Part shown: positions 1 to 5,900 of the stretch, piece after piece
Layout of the letters: every line of letters starts with the position of its first letter
How positions within the stretch are numbered: position 1 is the first letter of the stretch
Assembly (NCBI GenBank): GCA_903893935.1
Contig: CAITOD010000617.1
Location: forward strand, 1-5,966
Reading direction: 5' to 3'
Source of the DNA: an uncultured Sphingomonadales bacterium
Lineage (GTDB): Bacteria; Pseudomonadota; Alphaproteobacteria; Sphingomonadales; Sphingomonadaceae
DNA: 5,966 nucleotides
The notes under the pieces: model-generated
Databases searched by the model: none
What the model saw: the letters and a program-made list of their open reading frames with translations, nothing else
Told to the model about the DNA's origin: nothing
Translations under genes and position numbers: made by a program

Positions 1-563
1 TCCATATCCCTGCCCTGATAGGCGATCAGATCCTTGAGCCGATCGGCCGAGCCCGACAGCCGATCGACCGCGACCCGGCCCAGCGATTCGAGATCGCGGC
101 TTTGCGCGGCGATGAAATCGCGCGCGAGCGACAATTCGGTGTTCATGTTGCGCAGCCGCGCATCGAGCTGACGGCTTTCGTCGGCAAGCGCGCCGATCAC
201 CGCCGCGTGGCGGCTGGCATCGCGCAAAGTGGTGCGCGTGATCAGCACGCCGATCAGCACCAGCATGACCGGCAGCACCCACACCGTCACCAGATTGACC
301 AGCGTATCGGGCGTTGGCGCCGATCGCAGCTGCGGCGCCTTGGCCAGTGCAAAGAGCCCGGTCCAGCCCACGATCAGCAGCGTTGCGAGTGCCGGAACGA
401 TCCAGCGCAATCGCCCGCGCGGCTCAAGCGCATAGCCGGTTTGTGCGGCTTCGGCATGGTCGTCGCCATATGCTGCGACCGTCGGCGGTGCGTGACCTTC
501 CGCACCCGCGGTGTCGTCGACCGGCTCTCCATCGAGCGCGAAAATGCGTGATCCCCCGTTCAT
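1..563 (-). CDS. Two-helix membrane protein with coiled coil, N-terminal part (3' end outside window)
   Basis: I do not recognise the family. The reading frame is open from the ATG at 561-563 on the minus strand to the window edge and gives 187 residues. Residues 1-50 are acidic and Ala/Gly/Pro-rich with no signal peptide, so they are probably cytoplasmic. Residues 54-74 (WIVPALATLLIVGWTGLFAL region) and 89-108 (VNLVTVWVLPVMLVLIGVLI) are clear membrane helices forming a hairpin. From residue 111 the chain becomes charged and heptad-like (ESRQLDARLRNMNTELSLAR, then SRDLESLGRVAVDRL), which indicates a coiled coil that continues beyond the window. The predicted topology puts both ends in the cytoplasm. 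The gene diverges from the HPt-like gene across 72 bases that hold a CtrA box, which on this strand lies 34 bases before the ATG. Only a weak GGGA-type ribosome site precedes the start. The function could be scaffolding or envelope organisation, but that is a guess. Confidence 0.75.
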   Translation of the reverse strand, partial: MNGGSRIFALDGEPVDDTAGAEGHAPPTVAAYGDDHAEAAQTGYALEPRGRLRWIVPALATLLIVGWTGLFALAKAPQLRSAPTPDTLVNLVTVWVLPVMLVLIGVLITRTTLRDASRHAAVIGALADESRQLDARLRNMNTELSLARDFIAAQSRDLESLGRVAVDRLSGSADRLKDLIAYQGRDM

Positions 564-596: not shown

Positions 597-612
597 GTAA
601 CCCCGCCTTAAC
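597..612 (+). promoter_or_regulatory. Near-consensus CtrA box in divergent intergenic region
   Basis: The bases read GTAA-CCCCGCC-TTAAC, matching eight of the nine fixed positions of the alphaproteobacterial CtrA consensus TTAA-N7-TTAAC. The second half-site ends 23 bases before the ATG at 636, almost the same as the 22 bases at the second box (2339-2354), and both share the run CCGCCTTAACC or a close variant. On the other strand the site lies 34 bases before the ATG of the divergent gene, so it could control both. The TTAAC half-site falls in the loop of a small hairpin (CCCCG 601-605, CGGGG 613-617). Binding by CtrA is inferred from the motif only. Confidence 0.6.
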
Positions 613-635: not shown

Positions 636-941
636 ATGGCCTATCTTGGTGAAGCAATCGATGCGCATCTGGTTTCTGCGCTGGGCGACGATCCCGCGCT
701 GTTGCGCGAATTGCGCCGCGCGTTTCTTGACAGCGCGCTCGCCACGCTCGATCTGATGCGCCGCGCGCGGTGCGATGCCAATTGGCGCATCGCGGCCGAA
801 CGGCTCAAAGGGCTGGCGGCCACGTTCCACGGCAACGAACTGATCGCGCTGGCCGACGAGGCAATTGCCGGCGTGCCGGGCGACCCGGGGGTCTTGCGCC
901 GGATCCGCAAATTGCTCCAGGAAATCGACCCGACCGCGTAA
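636..941 (+). CDS. HPt-like protein lacking the phosphoacceptor histidine
   Basis: The 101-residue product has the length and helical pattern of a stand-alone histidine phosphotransfer (HPt) domain, the intermediate carrier in multistep phosphorelays. Helices run through residues 7-20, 22-44, 48-62, 67-78 and 85-96. The diagnostic stretch is residues 50-70 (W-RIAAERLKGLAATFHGNEL), which aligns with the family signature A-H-x-L-K-G. The position of the phosphorylated His is Glu55 (codon GAA, 798-800), while Leu57, Lys58 and Gly59 are kept. The only His nearby is His65, ten residues on, where most members have Gly or Leu-Gly. The protein therefore probably cannot carry phosphate in the usual way; Glu might mimic a phosphorylated state or the protein may only bind a kinase or receiver domain. 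The ATG at 636 is preceded by a GGGGAGAGGG tract (614-623) at a long spacing of 12 bases. An upstream ATG at 625 is out of frame. A CtrA box lies just upstream. Confidence 0.8.
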   Translation: MAYLGEAIDAHLVSALGDDPALLRELRRAFLDSALATLDLMRRARCDANWRIAAERLKGLAATFHGNELIALADEAIAGVPGDPGVLRRIRKLLQEIDPTA

Positions 942-952
942 TCTTAGCACTT

Positions 953-975
953 TTGCAAGGACAAGCGGTCCGCAA
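953..975 (+). other. Bulged inverted repeat after the HPt-like gene
   Basis: TTGC (953-956) pairs with GCAA (972-975) and GGAC (959-962) pairs with GTCC (968-971), around a five-base loop and an AA bulge at 957-958. It starts 12 bases after the HPt-like stop codon. No T-tract follows, so it is not a classic terminator; it could stabilise an mRNA 3' end or be an operator. It may also be chance in GC-rich DNA. Confidence 0.3.
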
Positions 976-1007
976 TCGTTAAGCTCCCGCTCACTAAGGT
1001 GATCGCG

Positions 1008-1024
1008 CGGCTTGGCATAAGCCG
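1008..1024 (+). other. Small hairpin in the leader of the 1129 gene
   Basis: CGGCTT (1008-1013) and AAGCCG (1019-1024) form a perfect 6-bp stem with loop GGCAT. It sits about 105 bases before the start codon at 1129 and is followed by GGCGCC-rich DNA rather than a T-tract. A role as terminator or regulatory element is unproven. Confidence 0.25.
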
Positions 1025-1113
1025 GAGCGGCGCCTAGCCTGACGACGCACCGGCGCCTATGGCGACGGGCAGACGCGCCCGCAGGCCCCGATCGGCGGCG
1101 TGGCAACGCGAAC

Positions 1114-1118
1114 AGGAG
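1114..1118 (+). promoter_or_regulatory. Ribosome binding site selecting the TTG start at 1129
   Basis: AGGAG lies 10 bases before TTG 1129. The GTG at 1100 is out of frame with the gene, and the product begins MRVALLSI, a plausible first beta-strand of the nucleotidyltransferase-like domain. This supports TTG as the start. Confidence 0.55.
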
Positions 1119-1128
1119 ATCAGGGTCG

Positions 1129-2367
1129 TTGCGGGTCGCATTGCTGTCGATAACCGAAGCCGCGAGCGGTGAACCCGCGGGCTTGCGCGCAAGCCTGACG
1201 ATCGGCGGGCGGTCGCTGGTGCGGCACCAGCTTGGCCTTGCGCTTGCGCTTGGGTGCACGCGCGTGGTGGTGCTTGCCGAAGCGCTGACCGGTGAAGTGG
1301 TCGCCTTGCAACAGGCGGCAGAAGCGTCGGGCGCACGGTTTCACGTGATCACTTCGGCGCACGGTCTCTTGCCGCTGGTCATGGCCGAAGACGATCTGAT
1401 TGTGCTGGGCGATGGCCTGCTGGCGCAGCCCGAACTGGCGCTGGCGCAGCTCGACGAAGCCAATGCGGTGCTTGCGCTGCCGGTCGAAGCCGGGCTCGCC
1501 GCCGGGTTTGAACGGATCGATATCAACCATGCCTATGCCGGCGCGATGCATGTGCCGGGCCGCGTGGTTGCGGGGTTGGGCGATCTGCCGCCCGAATGGA
1601 ACGCGCATGCCGCGTTGTTGCGGCTCGCGGTGCAGGGGCGCGTGCCCTTGCGCGCACTGCCCGATGCAGCGATCGCCGACGGGCGCTGGGCCGTGGTGCG
1701 TTCCGAGCCAGAGGCGCAAGCGATCGAACTGGTATGGCTGCGGCTGCACAGCGCGAGCGCGCATGTTCGCAGCCCGGGCGAATGGATCGCTGAAAGGTTG
1801 GTGCAACTGGTGGGGCCGGCGCTGCTCCACGCCGGCACGCGGCCCTGGGTGGTGGCCCTTGGCGGGGTGGTCGCCTTGTTGCTGGCGCTGGGATCGGGCT
1901 GGTTCGGCTGGCGCACGCCAGGCTTCGGGCTGCTCGCGGTGGCCTGGGTGCTGGCGCGGGTCGCTGCGCTGATCACGCGGATCGAGCGCCAGTCGCTGCT
2001 CGAAACCGGCAAGCAGCCGCCCACCGGCATGTGGTTCGAACTGATGATCGATGCGGCGCTGGTCGTGCTTGCGGCCTGGCGCAGCCAGATCCCGGCCGGG
2101 CCCGGCGTGCCGTTCGCGATCGGCTGGTTCGCCCCGGTCATGTTGCTGCTGCTGCTGCATTTTCTGCCGCGTGTGGTGCCCGAGGGGCGCATGACCTGGT
2201 GGCTGCGCGACCGGCTGGTGCTGGCACTGGCGCTGGCGGCGACGAGCATGCTGCTGCCGTTCGATCTATGCTTGCGCGCGGGTGTGATCGGGCTGGTGAT
2301 CTGGGCGCTGACAATCACCCCGAAACGATCCGAAATGGTTAACTCCGCCTTAACCCGATTCGATTAA
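1129..2367 (+). CDS. Nucleotidyltransferase-like plus CDP-alcohol phosphatidyltransferase-like membrane protein, probably degenerate
   Basis: The 412-residue product has two parts. Residues 1-200 resemble a GT-A-fold nucleotidyltransferase: a start like ...GLRASLTIGGRSLVRHQL, Gly42 before a VVVL strand, and EDDLIVLGDGLL (87-98) with Asp95 at the usual metal-binding place. The glycine-rich GxGxR loop and following Lys are not recognisable. Residues 238-396 contain six membrane helices (about 238-256, 265-283, 302-316, 327-346, 361-377, 382-396). Between helices 2 and 3, where CDP-alcohol phosphatidyltransferases carry DGxxAR...GxxxDxxxD, this protein has ITRIER (282-287) and G300-x3-E304-x3-D308. 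The spacing of the second half is exact, but the first Asp-Gly pair is gone and one Asp is Glu. The order matches bifunctional enzymes such as inositol-1-phosphate cytidylyltransferase/DIPP synthase, which use CDP-alcohols at the membrane, but catalysis is doubtful here. The start is TTG at 1129 with AGGAG at 1114-1118; no in-frame ATG is near. Fold assignment is inference from motifs. Confidence 0.65.
   Translation: MRVALLSITEAASGEPAGLRASLTIGGRSLVRHQLGLALALGCTRVVVLAEALTGEVVALQQAAEASGARFHVITSAHGLLPLVMAEDDLIVLGDGLLAQPELALAQLDEANAVLALPVEAGLAAGFERIDINHAYAGAMHVPGRVVAGLGDLPPEWNAHAALLRLAVQGRVPLRALPDAAIADGRWAVVRSEPEAQAIELVWLRLHSASAHVRSPGEWIAERLVQLVGPALLHAGTRPWVVALGGVVALLLALGSGWFGWRTPGFGLLAVAWVLARVAALITRIERQSLLETGKQPPTGMWFELMIDAALVVLAAWRSQIPAGPGVPFAIGWFAPVMLLLLLHFLPRVVPEGRMTWWLRDRLVLALALAATSMLLPFDLCLRAGVIGLVIWALTITPKRSEMVNSALTRFD
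2339..2354 (+). promoter_or_regulatory. Perfect CtrA box upstream of the helical-protein/kinase operon
   Basis: TTAA-CTCCGCC-TTAAC matches all nine fixed positions of the CtrA consensus. It lies within the last 29 bases of the preceding gene and ends 22 bases before the ATG at 2377. A third TTAA follows at 2364-2367, overlapping that gene's stop codon, and a GANTC site sits between them. If the first half-site overlaps a -35 element, GATTAA (2362-2367) would fall at the -10 position with a 17-base spacer and transcription would begin close to the start codon. Control of the two downstream genes by CtrA is inferred. Confidence 0.7.
2357..2361. promoter_or_regulatory. GANTC (CcrM-type) methylation site beside the CtrA box
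   Basis: GATTC is the recognition site of the alphaproteobacterial cell-cycle methylase CcrM. I found only one other GANTC in the window (85-89, inside the first gene). This one lies three bases after the CtrA box and 15 bases before the start codon, where hemimethylation during replication could alter promoter activity. Confidence 0.5.
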
Positions 2368-2376
2368 GCCGGTCCC

Positions 2377-3267
2377 ATGGTGCTTACGCTTGGTGCGGAT
2401 CGCGCGGGGGACGCAAAAGAGGCGCTGGCCGGTGCCGAGCACCGGCTGGTGACGGGCCTCGCATTGCTCGAACGCCACGCGGTGCTTGGACCCAGCCGCC
2501 TGATTGATGACGAGACCGTGGCGCGGGTGCGCGCGCTGGCGGGGGATCTGGCGCGGCAGTTGGCGGGTGAAGACCATGGCCTGGCCGAACGGCTGCGCGA
2601 CATGTTGCTCGCGCACCGCCCGATCCTGCTGCATCTTCACGCGCTCGCGATCGAGACCCGGTTGACCATCGCACTCGCGGTGCACCGCGGGCTCGATCCC
2701 GTGCTGCCGCCGCTTGTTGAGCACCGGCTCGATCCCGCCGCAGCCGGGCATGATGTTGCCGCGCTGGCTGCGGCCATGCTCGCAGCGCAGAGCCGGATCG
2801 GGCAGTGCTTGCGCCAAATGCGCTTGCCGATCGATGAATTGCCGGCGGACTTGCAACACCTGGCCCGGGCGACGCGCGCTGCCGCGCGGGCCGAACACGG
2901 GCAGCTCGATGATGCAACGCCATTGAGCGGCAAAGCCGAACCTGAAACGCGACTTGGGCTGCTGCGGCGACTGCTTGCGTCGCTCGGAGATGACATCACG
3001 CGCGCGCTGCAGATCGACCAGGCCGGATTGCCGCTGTTCCTCAGCGCGCTCGCGCTGGCGTCGGGCCATCCACGCGAACGCGTCGCGCTGGCGCTTGCCG
3101 AAGATCATGCGGTCCGACTGGCATTGCTGTTGCGCGCAGCCGGGCTGTCGGGTGTCGAGGCGGCCGCGCAATTGCTCGCGATCAGGCCCGAAGCCGATGC
3201 CGCGCTGGTCATGCTGGTCGAACAGGCCGGCGCTGCCGATGCGCTGCTTGGCGAGGTGTCGGCATGA
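2377..3267 (+). CDS. Uncharacterised all-helical protein, coupled to the kinase gene
   Basis: I do not recognise this 296-residue family with confidence. The product is Ala/Leu-rich, almost entirely helical by eye, with no signal peptide and no membrane segment, so it is probably cytoplasmic. Residues 37-62 (LGPSRLIDDETVARVRALAG onward) form a conserved-looking start to a helical bundle. A flexible, polar stretch at about 174-190 separates an N-terminal half from a C-terminal half with short helix pairs (about 192-210, 216-229, 232-253, 256-269, 272-293) that resemble HEAT-like repeats. Similarity to the alphaproteobacterial DUF2336 helical-repeat proteins is possible but weak. Its stop overlaps the kinase start as ATGA (3264-3267), so the two are probably translated together and may bind each other. 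There is no clear ribosome site before ATG 2377, and the CtrA box lies 22 bases upstream, suggesting a very short or absent leader. Confidence 0.75.
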   Translation: MVLTLGADRAGDAKEALAGAEHRLVTGLALLERHAVLGPSRLIDDETVARVRALAGDLARQLAGEDHGLAERLRDMLLAHRPILLHLHALAIETRLTIALAVHRGLDPVLPPLVEHRLDPAAAGHDVAALAAAMLAAQSRIGQCLRQMRLPIDELPADLQHLARATRAAARAEHGQLDDATPLSGKAEPETRLGLLRRLLASLGDDITRALQIDQAGLPLFLSALALASGHPRERVALALAEDHAVRLALLLRAAGLSGVEAAAQLLAIRPEADAALVMLVEQAGAADALLGEVSA

Positions 3268-4631
3268 CGCGGGTGACGCCGATCGAGGGCCGCTGCGATG
3301 CCGCCGACCGACTGATCGAAGCCGGGCCGGCGCTTGCCGGGCTGCAATTGCGCTGCGGCGGCGATATGCCGGGAACGCTGGCGGTGCCAGCGCTGCTGAC
3401 GCTGGTGCGCCGCACGCGCGCGTCGGGCGTGGCGCAATTGCGCACTGTGAACGCGGTTGACGAAGGCAGGCAGATTGCATTTCTGGCGCATGTTGCGCCA
3501 GCCGGCGAGGGCACGCATATCGCGCTCAGCCATTGGCGGCTGGCGGGTGAAGCCACGGCGGATCAGGGCGCCGACGCCGCTGTGCTCGGCCAGATCGCTG
3601 CGCTGCACGCGGTGCTCGATCGTGATCAACGCGTGCTGGCGGTCGACCTGCGGCTTGAAGACAATGATCTTGTGCACGACGCGGGCGCGTTGCGCGCGCT
3701 CGCGGACCAGTGGCGCGAGAGCGGCCGGCCATGGAGCGAGGCGGTCGAACTGATCGGCATTGCCCATCGTCAGCCGCTGCACTGGCGTCTGCTCGACGAC
3801 GCCGTGCTGCGGATCGAGGGATCGGACCGGCCGTGGCGCGCACGGTTGCTGCCGCGCGGCGAAGCCGGGTTCGAATTGCTGCTTGCCGCCGACGGCTTGC
3901 GCGCGCCGCAGTCGCCGGCTGAGCCCGAACCGTTGCTCGCTGCCGAAACGACGCCGGGCAGCCGGCTGATCGGGCGCGATCTCGCGCCCGCGCTGCGCCA
4001 GCCGATCAACCGGATCATCGCCAACGCCGAAACCATCCGCACCCGGCTGGCGGGGCCGCTGTCCGACGCCTATGCGGGCTACGCCGCCGATATCGCAGAA
4101 GCGGGGCGGCACTTGCTGGCGCTGGTCGAGGATCTTGCCGATCTTGACGCAGTCGAAGCACCCGAATTTTCACCTGCACCCGATCGCATCGACCTTGCCG
4201 ATTGCGCGCGCCGTGCGGCCGGCATCCTGGCCATGCGTGCGCAGGAACGCGGCATTGCACTTGCGCTGCCCGACGACACCGCCAAAGTGCCCGCGATCGG
4301 CGAATTTCGCCGTGTGTTGCAAATCCTGCTCAATCTCGTCACCAATGCGATCCGCTACAGCCCGCCGCAGTCGACCGTCACAATTGAATGCGGCGGCGAT
4401 GCCACGACCGCGTGGATCGCGGTGCGCGACGAAGGCGCGGGGCTGCGCGAAGACCAGATCGCGCGCGTGTTCGAAAAGTTCGAACGGCTGGGCCGCACTG
4501 GCGATGGCGGCAGCGGGCTCGGTCTTTATATTTCGCGGCGCCTCGCGCGCGCGATGCACGGCGATCTTACCGTTGCGGCGGGACCGGGGGCGCGGTTTGT
4601 GCTGACATTGCCGGGGCGACCGGCGAGCTGA
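3264..4631 (+). CDS. Histidine kinase-like protein with Pro at the phosphoacceptor position
   Basis: The 455-residue product ends in a HisKA-HATPase_c module. Residues 1-225 are a soluble N-terminal region of mixed strands and helices, possibly PAS-like, without membrane helices, so the protein is cytoplasmic. The dimerisation helix starts near 236; the H-box reads APALRQPIN (241-249), which aligns with S-H-E-L-R-T-P-L-N and puts Pro242 (codon CCC, 3987-3989) in place of the phosphorylated His. The second helix follows at 266-294. The ATP domain looks complete: N-box LNLVTNAIRYS (356-366, Asn361), G1 DEGAG (389-393), F-box FEKF (403-406) and G2 GGSGLGL (415-421). It could bind ATP, phosphorylate a partner, or act allosterically, as DivL does with Tyr in place of His. 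It is the second gene of a coupled pair with the helical protein, under a perfect CtrA box. Its last 65 bases overlap the convergent MFS gene. Confidence 0.85.
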   Translation: MTRVTPIEGRCDAADRLIEAGPALAGLQLRCGGDMPGTLAVPALLTLVRRTRASGVAQLRTVNAVDEGRQIAFLAHVAPAGEGTHIALSHWRLAGEATADQGADAAVLGQIAALHAVLDRDQRVLAVDLRLEDNDLVHDAGALRALADQWRESGRPWSEAVELIGIAHRQPLHWRLLDDAVLRIEGSDRPWRARLLPRGEAGFELLLAADGLRAPQSPAEPEPLLAAETTPGSRLIGRDLAPALRQPINRIIANAETIRTRLAGPLSDAYAGYAADIAEAGRHLLALVEDLADLDAVEAPEFSPAPDRIDLADCARRAAGILAMRAQERGIALALPDDTAKVPAIGEFRRVLQILLNLVTNAIRYSPPQSTVTIECGGDATTAWIAVRDEGAGLREDQIARVFEKFERLGRTGDGGSGLGLYISRRLARAMHGDLTVAAGPGARFVLTLPGRPAS

Positions 4632-5883
4632 AAGTCGGTTGCACCGCCGTCCAGTCGATCGGTTCAATGCGGCGCACCAGGAAAATCCATGCCAGCAGTC
4701 CTGCCACGCCAACCACGGCGGCGGACACGAAGGCGAGGCTGAACGAGCCGGTGCGGTCGACGATCATCCCGGTGACGAGCGGCGCGACGACGCCTGAGAG
4801 GGTGCCGATCCCGTTTTGCAGACCAACCCAGCGCGCCGCAGCGTGCGGACCGCTCAGTGTCTGGCCGATCGCATAGAAATTGAAGCCGCACAGGCCATTG
4901 GCGAAAGCAAAGACCAGCAGGCCGGCGATGGCGACGGGCGCACTGCCAAGCGCGCACGCGAGCATCGTGCCGATCCCGATCACGGTGCCGGTGCAGACCA
5001 TCGTCATGCGGACGCGATGCGAAGTGGCTCCGGCGCGCATCCACACGTCGGACAGGCGCCCGAACAGCAGCGAAAGCCCGGAGGACAAAAGATAGACGAG
5101 CCCCGCCAGTTCGCCCATCACCGGCAGCGACAGGCCTTGCACTTTGACAAGGTAGAGCGGGAGCCAGGTGATCAGGAGAAACCACGTATAGTTCCCGGCA
5201 AATGTGCCGATCGTGGTTCCCCACAACTGGCGCCGGCACAGCAGATCGCGGTACGGCGGCTCGCGCCGGTGTATTTGCGCAGATGCCGCAGTCGAAGCGT
5301 GGCGCGTACCCGACAGCCAGGGGATCAACCACAGCAGCGAGCCGCCGCCAAACACGACGAACATCGGCCGCCAGCCAAACCGCGCCAGAAATGCGGCGCC
5401 GAGCACCGTGCCGAGGGCCGGCCCGAGATAGATGCCGGCGAGGATCGCGGCATTGGCCGAGCCCAGCTTTTCGGGCGCGATATGCTGGGCCAGAAGTTTG
5501 GAAGTCGCGGGCCAGCTTGCGCTTTCGCCAAGGCCCAGCAGCAAGCGCAGCGCCAGAAGGGCGGCAAACCCGCTGGCAAGGCCCGACAGCATGGTTGCCA
5601 GCGACCACAAAGCCAGACTGAACGCCATCGTGCGATAGGGATTGAGCCGGGCGATCACCCAGCCGGCCATGACCTGGCCCGGCGCATAGACAAAGAAAAA
5701 GGCCGAACCCAGCGCGCCGATCTGCGTGTTGGTCAATCGCATCTGGTCTTTGATCAGCGGCGCCGCCGTCGCCAGATTGCCGCGATCGAGGTAATTGATG
5801 AACAAGGCCAGCGCGAGCAGACCAACGATCATGCCGGACCCCGGCGCCTTATGCGCTCCCGCCAACACCTTGTCCGGTTTCAT
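4567..5883 (-). CDS. MFS transporter, anion:cation symporter (ACS) type
   Basis: The 438-residue inner-membrane protein has twelve predicted helices and the length of the major facilitator superfamily. Helix 1 ends in INYLDRGNLATAAPLIKDQ (29-47), and the pattern LTNTQIGALGSAFFFVYAPG (50-69) is typical of the ACS family, which moves organic anions such as sugar acids with protons or Na+. RLLLGLGES (113-121) marks helix 4 and GRLSD (275-279) the motif-A equivalent after helix 8. Residues about 195-220 are the central cytoplasmic loop. The exact substrate cannot be read from sequence. I chose the ATG at 5881-5883; a TTG at 5895 would add four residues, but a TATAAA -10-like element at 5901-5906 would place transcription initiation close to it. 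The tail from about residue 415 is Pro/Ala-rich, is not part of the fold, and is encoded antisense to the end of the kinase gene. No catabolic or regulatory partner gene lies in the window. Confidence 0.9.
   Translation of the reverse strand: MKPDKVLAGAHKAPGSGMIVGLLALALFINYLDRGNLATAAPLIKDQMRLTNTQIGALGSAFFFVYAPGQVMAGWVIARLNPYRTMAFSLALWSLATMLSGLASGFAALLALRLLLGLGESASWPATSKLLAQHIAPEKLGSANAAILAGIYLGPALGTVLGAAFLARFGWRPMFVVFGGGSLLWLIPWLSGTRHASTAASAQIHRREPPYRDLLCRRQLWGTTIGTFAGNYTWFLLITWLPLYLVKVQGLSLPVMGELAGLVYLLSSGLSLLFGRLSDVWMRAGATSHRVRMTMVCTGTVIGIGTMLACALGSAPVAIAGLLVFAFANGLCGFNFYAIGQTLSGPHAAARWVGLQNGIGTLSGVVAPLVTGMIVDRTGSFSLAFVSAAVVGVAGLLAWIFLVRRIEPIDWTAVQPTFSSPVAPAMSAQTAPPVPPQR
4610..4624 (+). other. 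Short hairpin at the end of the kinase gene
   Basis: GCCGG (4610-4614) and CCGGC (4620-4624) enclose a five-base loop just before the kinase stop codon. There is no T-tract on either strand, so it is a poor candidate terminator for either convergent gene. No better terminator is visible in this convergent overlap. Confidence 0.2.
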
Positions 5884-5900
5884 CCGCTGCCCCAATGATT

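What the first reader, a model, noticed from the sequence alone, without database searches (positions are those of the whole stretch)
636..4631. Candidate non-catalytic signalling module of adjacent genes
Three of the four consecutive plus-strand genes (HPt-like, membrane enzyme-like, kinase-like) keep folds but lack the defining catalytic residues, and two are preceded by, or sit in a pair preceded by, CtrA boxes. Independent decay is unlikely because all frames are intact and overlaps are tight. A plausible reading is a scaffold or allosteric circuit tied to the cell cycle, with the coupled helical protein as partner of the pseudokinase.
Basis: inference. Interest (0 to 1): 0.7.

Follow-up and report, generated by a model that had tools for sequence, protein, structure and literature searches.

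The report
Conserved cluster of dead signalling enzymes
Across sphingomonad bacteria a conserved row of genes keeps three proteins that lack the catalytic residues of the families they come from, and together they likely act as a non-catalytic switch tied to the cell-cycle regulator CtrA.

Summary
The four plus-strand genes encode an HPt-like protein, a membrane protein with the IPCT-DIPPS fold, a diverged DUF2336 protein and a histidine-kinase-like protein. The first, second and fourth lack their catalytic residues. The HK phospho-site is Pro in the window and its 119 best-listed homologues and non-His in 57 of 60 family loci, while ATP-binding motifs stay invariant. HK and DUF2336 genes adjoin in 55 of 60 loci; all four genes are in line in 41 of 60. 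dN/dS is 0.03-0.44. CtrA-like boxes (TTAA-N7-TTAA) precede the HPt and DUF2336 genes far above chance. Early-branching relatives and 20 of 20 loci from six sister families carry a catalytic kinase site (HELRT/HELKT), so the loss is derived. A divergent coiled-coil gene lies beside the cluster in 49 of 60 loci. Against one tight module: in 11 genomes the degenerate membrane gene stands without the pair. Best reading: a CtrA-linked pseudokinase hub that works like DivL but is not DivL. Partners, ligand and output are untested.

The parts
1..563 (-). 5' part of a divergent gene (runs off the left edge): by eye two hydrophobic segments followed by a long coiled coil
   Evidence: Relatives of the 904-aa open frame of L097 lie beside the cluster in 49 of 60 loci at E<=1e-20; no Pfam or NCBIfam family above cut-off
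597..611 (+). CtrA-like box GTAA-N7-TTAA, starting 39 bp before the gene 1 start
   Evidence: 7 of 8 positions; a box of 7 or 8 in 27 of 45 family loci against 1.4 expected
636..941 (+). HPt-like protein without the phospho-acceptor His (Glu55, codon 798-800)
   Evidence: No His at this column in the 34 rows of A3 or in the 20 Novosphingobium copies; 13 of 34 match Pfam Hpt
1129..2367 (+). Membrane pseudoenzyme with the IPCT-DIPPS fold (nucleotidyltransferase-like domain plus CDP-alcohol-phosphotransferase-like membrane domain); TTG start
2339..2353 (+). CtrA-like box TTAA-N7-TTAA (8 of 8) inside the last codons of gene 2, starting 38 bp before the gene 3 start
   Evidence: A box of 7 or 8 in 52 of 57 family loci against 2.7 expected
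2377..3267 (+). Diverged DUF2336 protein, all-helical
   Evidence: 19 of 39 aligned members match PF10098; AF2 pLDDT 89.6; directly upstream of the HK gene in 55 of 60 loci
3264..4631 (+). Pseudo-histidine kinase, start overlapping the stop of gene 3 (ATGA); phospho-site His replaced by Pro242 (codon 3987-3989), ATP-binding motifs intact

Best explanation
The window holds a gene cluster conserved across Sphingomonadaceae in which an HPt-like protein, an IPCT-DIPPS-fold membrane protein and a histidine-kinase-like protein lack their catalytic residues, and it likely works as a non-catalytic signalling hub in which the pseudokinase would read a phosphorylated receiver and feed back on the CtrA pathway. 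Shown: conservation, absence of the catalytic residues, invariant ATP-binding motifs, boxes of CtrA type in front of two genes, and relatives with the catalytic residues in early branches. Inferred: CtrA~P turns on gene 1 (and the coiled-coil gene that shares its promoter region) and the gene 3-4 pair. The DUF2336 protein and the pseudokinase, made from overlapping frames, form a pair. The membrane pseudoenzyme would hold them at the membrane, the HPt-like protein would occupy a receiver without passing phosphate, and ATP binding by the pseudokinase would set its conformation. Output would be on CckA-ChpT-CtrA, as DivL does in Caulobacter.
For: HK phospho-site: Pro in the window and its 119 best-listed homologues. 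In the 49-row family alignment it takes 12 states (His in one row, L153), the acidic +1 residue is absent in 49 of 49 and T or N at +4 is present in 2 of 49, while N357, N361, D389, G391, F403, G416, G418 and G420 are invariant in 49 of 49. HK present in 184 of 195 genus genomes, 147 of 149 of high quality. HK and DUF2336 adjoin in 55 of 60 loci, all four in line in 41 of 60. dN/dS 0.03-0.44. CtrA-like boxes upstream of genes 1 and 3. In 20 of 20 loci from six sister families DUF2336 sits by an HK with HELRT or HELKT, so the kinase state is ancestral; trees put the His-bearing family members at the base. All 9 genomes without a ChpT (PF10090) match are among the 24 of 119 without the HK at 1e-30, against 15 of 110 with a ChpT match.
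Against: No binding, localisation or phenotype data exist here. In 11 genomes (G013, G027, G028, G036, G045, G046, G053, G056, G057, G063, G110) the degenerate membrane gene has no DUF2336-HK in the fetched stretch, so it may have a life of its own. ATP binding is inferred from motifs; DivL itself binds an ATP analogue weakly (PMC4211667, passages). The gene 1 box is weaker outside Novosphingobium: 18 of 20 Novosphingobium loci but 8 of 24 others score 7 or 8. L153 and L214 (one genus) have His at the site, followed by Ser. The ChpT association is not corrected for kinship (7 genera); G017, which has the HK, has only a weak PF10090 match inside a 664-aa frame; in G117 the HK would lie beyond the contig end; and G005, counted as lacking the HK, has a diverged one with DUF2336 and membrane gene. 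The window's DUF2336 sequence alone found relatives in only 50 of 119 family genomes. I did not test whether this genome has a true DivL; a paper says divL is more widely conserved than the other polarity genes (PMC8116508, passages).
Confidence: 0.45

Rival explanations
1. The genes share CtrA-type promoters and a place on the chromosome but act separately: the DUF2336-pseudokinase pair is one unit, the HPt-like and membrane pseudoenzymes are others.
For: Two separate boxes split the row into gene 1(-2) and genes 3-4. In 11 genomes the degenerate membrane gene stands without the pair; HPt is found in 44 of 60 loci while HK-DUF2336 adjoin in 55.
Against: Order and strand are kept over the family (41 of 60 with all four). 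In the main clade the HK His and the CDP-alcohol motif were lost on neighbouring branches, just before and just after G017.
Confidence: 0.33
2. The HK-like protein is still an enzyme: it binds ATP and phosphorylates another HK, or uses another His, in a heterodimer.
For: ATP-binding motif residues are invariant in 49 of 49. His283 in the second DHp helix is invariant in the 49 rows.
Against: His283 is equally present in the relatives that keep the normal site (L154 and L155), so it is no new site. The acidic residue after the site, needed for transfer (recalled), is gone in 49 of 49.
Confidence: 0.12
3. The genes are decaying remnants under weak constraint.
For: Gene 3 evolves fastest (dN/dS 0.12-0.44), and dS is near saturation in many pairs, so the ratios are rough.
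Against: Every pair with a finite value is below 0.45; the HK is in 147 of 149 good genus genomes; ATP motifs are invariant.
Confidence: 0.03

Closest known systems
DivL pseudo-histidine kinase of Caulobacter (CckA-ChpT-CtrA regulator)
   Same: HK fold without a phospho-acceptor His, ATP-binding motifs kept, linked here to CtrA-type promoters; profile match to DivL 4q20 at E 1.2e-28
   Different: Pro or other residues, not Tyr, at the site (no Tyr in 49 rows); DivL is only the 12th listed profile match, below ordinary HKs; a DUF2336 partner and the other pseudoenzymes do not appear in the passages of the DivL paper that I saw
DUF2336 - HK pair of the sister families, kinase site intact
   Same: Same two genes in the same order; the HK tree joins them
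   Different: Kinase there keeps HELRT or HELKT; no HPt-like or membrane-gene relative at the thresholds used in those 12-18-kb loci
IPCT-DIPPS bifunctional membrane protein (4mnd) and CDP-alcohol phosphotransferases
   Same: Same two-domain fold over 360 residues
   Different: CDP-alcohol motif absent in 49 of the 51 rows compared, the window among them
HPt / ChpT phosphotransfer proteins
   Same: HPt fold by homology
   Different: No His at the phospho-site; a ChpT gene lies elsewhere in this genome (G000:C692)

Membership tests
DivL | Tyr in place of the phospho-acceptor His (Ala in one genus, PMC4211667 passages) | tested here: not met
   Pro242 in the window; no Tyr in 49 rows
DivL | HK core with kept N, G1, F, G2 boxes | tested here: met
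DivL | Several N-terminal PAS domains | tested here: inconclusive
   PAS families match at most 3 of 49 members each, not the window; the N-terminus looks PAS-like by eye only
DivL | Binds DivK~P and controls CckA | not testable with these tools
   Needs protein
Active histidine kinase (HisKA/HATPase_c) | Phospho-acceptor His and following acidic residue | tested here: not met
HPt phosphotransfer protein | His in HxLKG | tested here: not met
   Glu55; none in 34 rows
CDP-alcohol phosphotransferase / IPCT-DIPPS | Motif DG..AR........G...D...D (recalled) | tested here: not met
CDP-alcohol phosphotransferase / IPCT-DIPPS | Two-domain fold | tested here: met
IPCT nucleotidyltransferase | Sugar-nucleotidyltransferase signature (recalled) | tested here: inconclusive
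   NTP_transf_3 matches 4 of 44 members, not the window
DUF2336 (PF10098) | Match to the curated model | tested here: inconclusive
   Window copy does not match; 19 of 39 aligned members do
CtrA regulon | TTAA-N7-TTAA box upstream (motif recalled) | tested here: met
CtrA regulon | CtrA binding and CtrA-dependent transcription | not testable with these tools
   Needs ChIP-seq or a ctrA mutant

The most novel reading that the evidence does not exclude
Sphingomonads rebuilt a membrane polarity or cell-cycle hub out of dead enzymes: a pseudo-HPt, a pseudo inositol-lipid synthase and a pseudokinase, with DUF2336 and a divergent coiled-coil membrane protein, became one CtrA-driven scaffold that stands in for the degenerate DivJ-PleC-DivK layer.
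Probability: 0.2. Interest if true: 0.9.

Novelty: new variant of a known kind. Interest (0 to 1): 0.7.

Why it matters
A published survey reports that Sphingomonadales keep CckA-ChpT-CtrA while the DivJ-PleC-DivK layer is degenerate or lost, with DivK or PleC found in several of them (PMC2877005, passages), so what reads the cell's state for CtrA there is open. This cluster is a concrete and widespread candidate in that family. It also gives DUF2336, which no paper of the held library mentions, a partner and a testable role, and it offers a natural series from catalytic to non-catalytic versions, so that the question of why signalling enzymes become pseudoenzymes can be tested with living intermediates.

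Tried and rejected

Rows dropped before counts: A1 used 38 of 56 DUF2336 loci plus window (L151 left out because its domain lies at the end of a 920-codon open frame whose start I could not set; L151 therefore also counts as lacking DUF2336); A2 43 of 56; A3 33 of 44; A4 48 of 60 (L154 and L155, which keep the His, and ten other loci left out), each plus window. The 60 loci were chosen because they hold the HK: 20 of the genus genomes and 40 of the other family genomes. Of the 24 HK-less genomes four (G106, G110, G113, G117) are known by subtraction, as one search lists twenty.

Full report
What is there. The window is one contig of a draft genome (G000, 755 contigs, 82% complete); where a source names the best homologues of gene 4, they are mostly Novosphingobium. 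Four plus-strand genes follow each other. Gene 1, 101 aa, is HPt-like. Gene 2, 412 aa, TTG start, is a membrane protein. Gene 3, 296 aa, is all-helical. Gene 4, 455 aa, is histidine-kinase-like and its start overlaps the stop of gene 3.

Gene 4. HATPase_c matches at E 9.8e-24 and HisKA at 1.5e-5, below its cut-off. The phospho-acceptor position is Pro242, and it is Pro in the window and in its 119 best-listed homologues; 6197 proteins matched in all and only the best 120 rows were looked at. The gene is present at E<=1e-40 in 184 of 195 genomes of the genus, 147 of 149 of good quality, and at E<=1e-30 in 95 of 119 genomes of the family. In the family-wide alignment A4 (49 rows) the site takes 12 states, the acidic residue after it is never present, T or N at +4 occurs in 2 rows, and eight ATP-binding columns are invariant. 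So kinase and phosphatase chemistry are both unlikely, while nucleotide binding is likely kept.

Gene 1. Thirteen of 34 aligned members match Pfam Hpt, but none has His at the HxLKG position; the window has Glu55.

Gene 3. The window copy matches no family, but 19 of 39 aligned members match DUF2336. The window sequence alone finds relatives in 50 of 119 family genomes; the model (pLDDT 89.6) has no significant PDB match. No paper held mentions DUF2336.

Neighbourhood. In 60 loci chosen for the HK (20 Novosphingobium, 40 others of the family), a membrane-gene relative is found in 56, DUF2336 in 56 (L151 in an over-long open frame), HPt in 44. With strand and distance limits, DUF2336-HK adjoin in 55, membrane-DUF2336 in 48, HPt-membrane in 44, all four in 41 of 60. 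Fifteen of fifteen sphingomonad loci among the titled records (L217-L231), including Sphingobium sp. SYK-6 and two Sphingopyxis, show membrane gene, DUF2336 and non-His HK; HPt is found in 12 of 15. The membrane gene occurs in 110 of 119 family genomes at 1e-15, which includes motif-bearing copies. A divergent gene, whose first part is window 1-563, lies beside the cluster in 49 of 60 loci; the downstream MFS gene is found in none of the 60 at 1e-40.

Selection. Nei-Gojobori dN/dS over 13 pairs per gene lies at 0.03-0.16 for gene 1 (one pair saturated), 0.09-0.29 for gene 2, 0.12-0.44 for gene 3 and 0.11-0.26 for gene 4. Many dS values are above 1, so the ratios are rough, but none suggests neutrality.

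Promoters. The best TTAA-N7-TTAA match from -150 to +30 scores 7 or 8 of 8 upstream of gene 3 in 52 of 57 loci (2.7 expected from dinucleotide shuffles) and upstream of gene 1 in 27 of 45 (1.4 expected). Upstream of gene 2 it does so in 1 of 57 (2.0 expected) and of gene 4 in 4 of 61 (0.7 expected, slightly above chance). Counted from that listing, 26 of the 27 gene 1 boxes and 34 of the 52 gene 3 boxes start 37-42 bp before the assigned start codon; the gene 1 box is kept in 18 of 20 Novosphingobium loci but 8 of 24 others. The gene 3 box lies in the last codons of gene 2 and goes with an N..LT peptide in most of the 20 Novosphingobium rows, by eye. That CtrA is the binder is inferred from the motif, which is recalled.

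Ancestry. DUF2336 sits next to an HK with HELRT or HELKT in 20 of 20 loci from six sister families of the order. Within the family, G007, G012, G040, G052 and G085 keep that His. G085 also keeps the CDP-alcohol motif and an HPt with AHRLKG in the same row of genes; HPt-like proteins with His also occur in G040 (another contig), G056 and G007. In G085 the membrane gene lies beside a myo-inositol-phosphate synthase and a nucleotidyltransferase, which points to an inositol-lipid role in the ancestor. RpoB and HK trees agree that G040, G085 and G017 branch before the rest, with weak support for the order of G085 and G017 in the RpoB tree (85/47). The HK His was lost on the branch above G017 (25 rows, support 100/99); two of these rows of one genus (L153, L214) have His again, followed by Ser. 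The CDP-alcohol motif of the main clade was lost just after G017 (17 rows, 100/100) and on at least two other branches, so one common event is not the answer.

Link to the CtrA pathway. ChpT (PF10090) matches in 110 of 119 family genomes. All 9 without a match are among the 24 without the HK at 1e-30, against 15 of 110 with a match (Fisher p 1.4e-7; by genus 7 of 7, p 4e-6). This is not corrected for kinship. G017 has only a weak match in a large frame; G117's HK would fall beyond its contig; G005, counted as HK-less, has a diverged cluster. Five of the nine (G030, G038, G072, G101, G113) keep a membrane gene with the intact motif and have no DUF2336-HK within the fetched stretch. Sphingomonadales keep CckA-ChpT-CtrA while DivJ-PleC-DivK is degenerate or lost, with DivK or PleC found in several (PMC2877005, passages).

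Against one tight module. In 11 genomes the degenerate membrane gene stands without DUF2336-HK in the fetched stretch (G013, G027, G028, G036, G045, G046, G053, G056, G057, G063, G110). All but G110 of these still have a PF10090 match, weak in G063.

How it likely works. DivL shows the principle: a pseudokinase that no longer catalyses reads DivK~P and controls CckA-ChpT-CtrA (PMC4211667, passages). I propose the same logic here, with gene 4 as reader, gene 3 as its coupled partner, gene 2 as membrane anchor, gene 1 as a receiver-occupying adaptor, and CtrA as the promoter input that closes a loop. Only the anatomy, conservation and history are shown; every contact and the output are inferred. 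It is not filed as DivL: the Tyr is absent and the profile match is no better than to ordinary kinases. Whether a true DivL is present in this genome was not tested.

Change on checking. The number of sister families was corrected from seven to six and HPt among titled loci from 13 to 12.

Noticed in passing
window 1-563 (-); L097:2545-5256: Divergent gene sharing the 564-635 region with gene 1: by eye two hydrophobic segments and a long coiled coil; relatives beside the cluster in 49 of 60 loci, listed homologues about 680-1010 aa; its build recalls Caulobacter TipN (recalled, not tested).
   Followed up: partly
L208/L354 (G085): Membrane-gene relative with intact CDP-alcohol motif beside a myo-inositol-phosphate synthase and a nucleotidyltransferase, with a His-bearing HPt and a DUF2336-HK pair that keeps the kinase site in the same row.
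   Followed up: partly
L153, L214 (genus g25): HK phospho-site is His but followed by Ser instead of an acidic residue; regained or kept on a long branch.
   Followed up: no
L357:5962-7485 (G196, same genus): A second copy of the membrane gene with an intact CDP-alcohol motif coexists with the cluster-type copy in the same genome.
   Followed up: no
L331-L335, L337, L338: Five genomes without a ChpT match, and G003/G097 with a weak one, carry the membrane gene with intact motif and no DUF2336-HK in the fetched stretch.
   Followed up: partly
L336, L340, L342-L344, L346-L351: Eleven genomes with a degenerate membrane gene and no DUF2336-HK in the fetched stretch: the pseudoenzyme can stand alone.
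   Followed up: no
window 2339-2353: The CtrA-like box overlaps coding sequence, so the gene 2 C-terminus ends in an N..LT peptide in most of the 20 Novosphingobium rows.
   Followed up: partly
window 4567-5895 (-): MFS transporter, E 1.1e-54 to MFS_1; no relative at 1e-40 in the 60 loci.
   Followed up: yes
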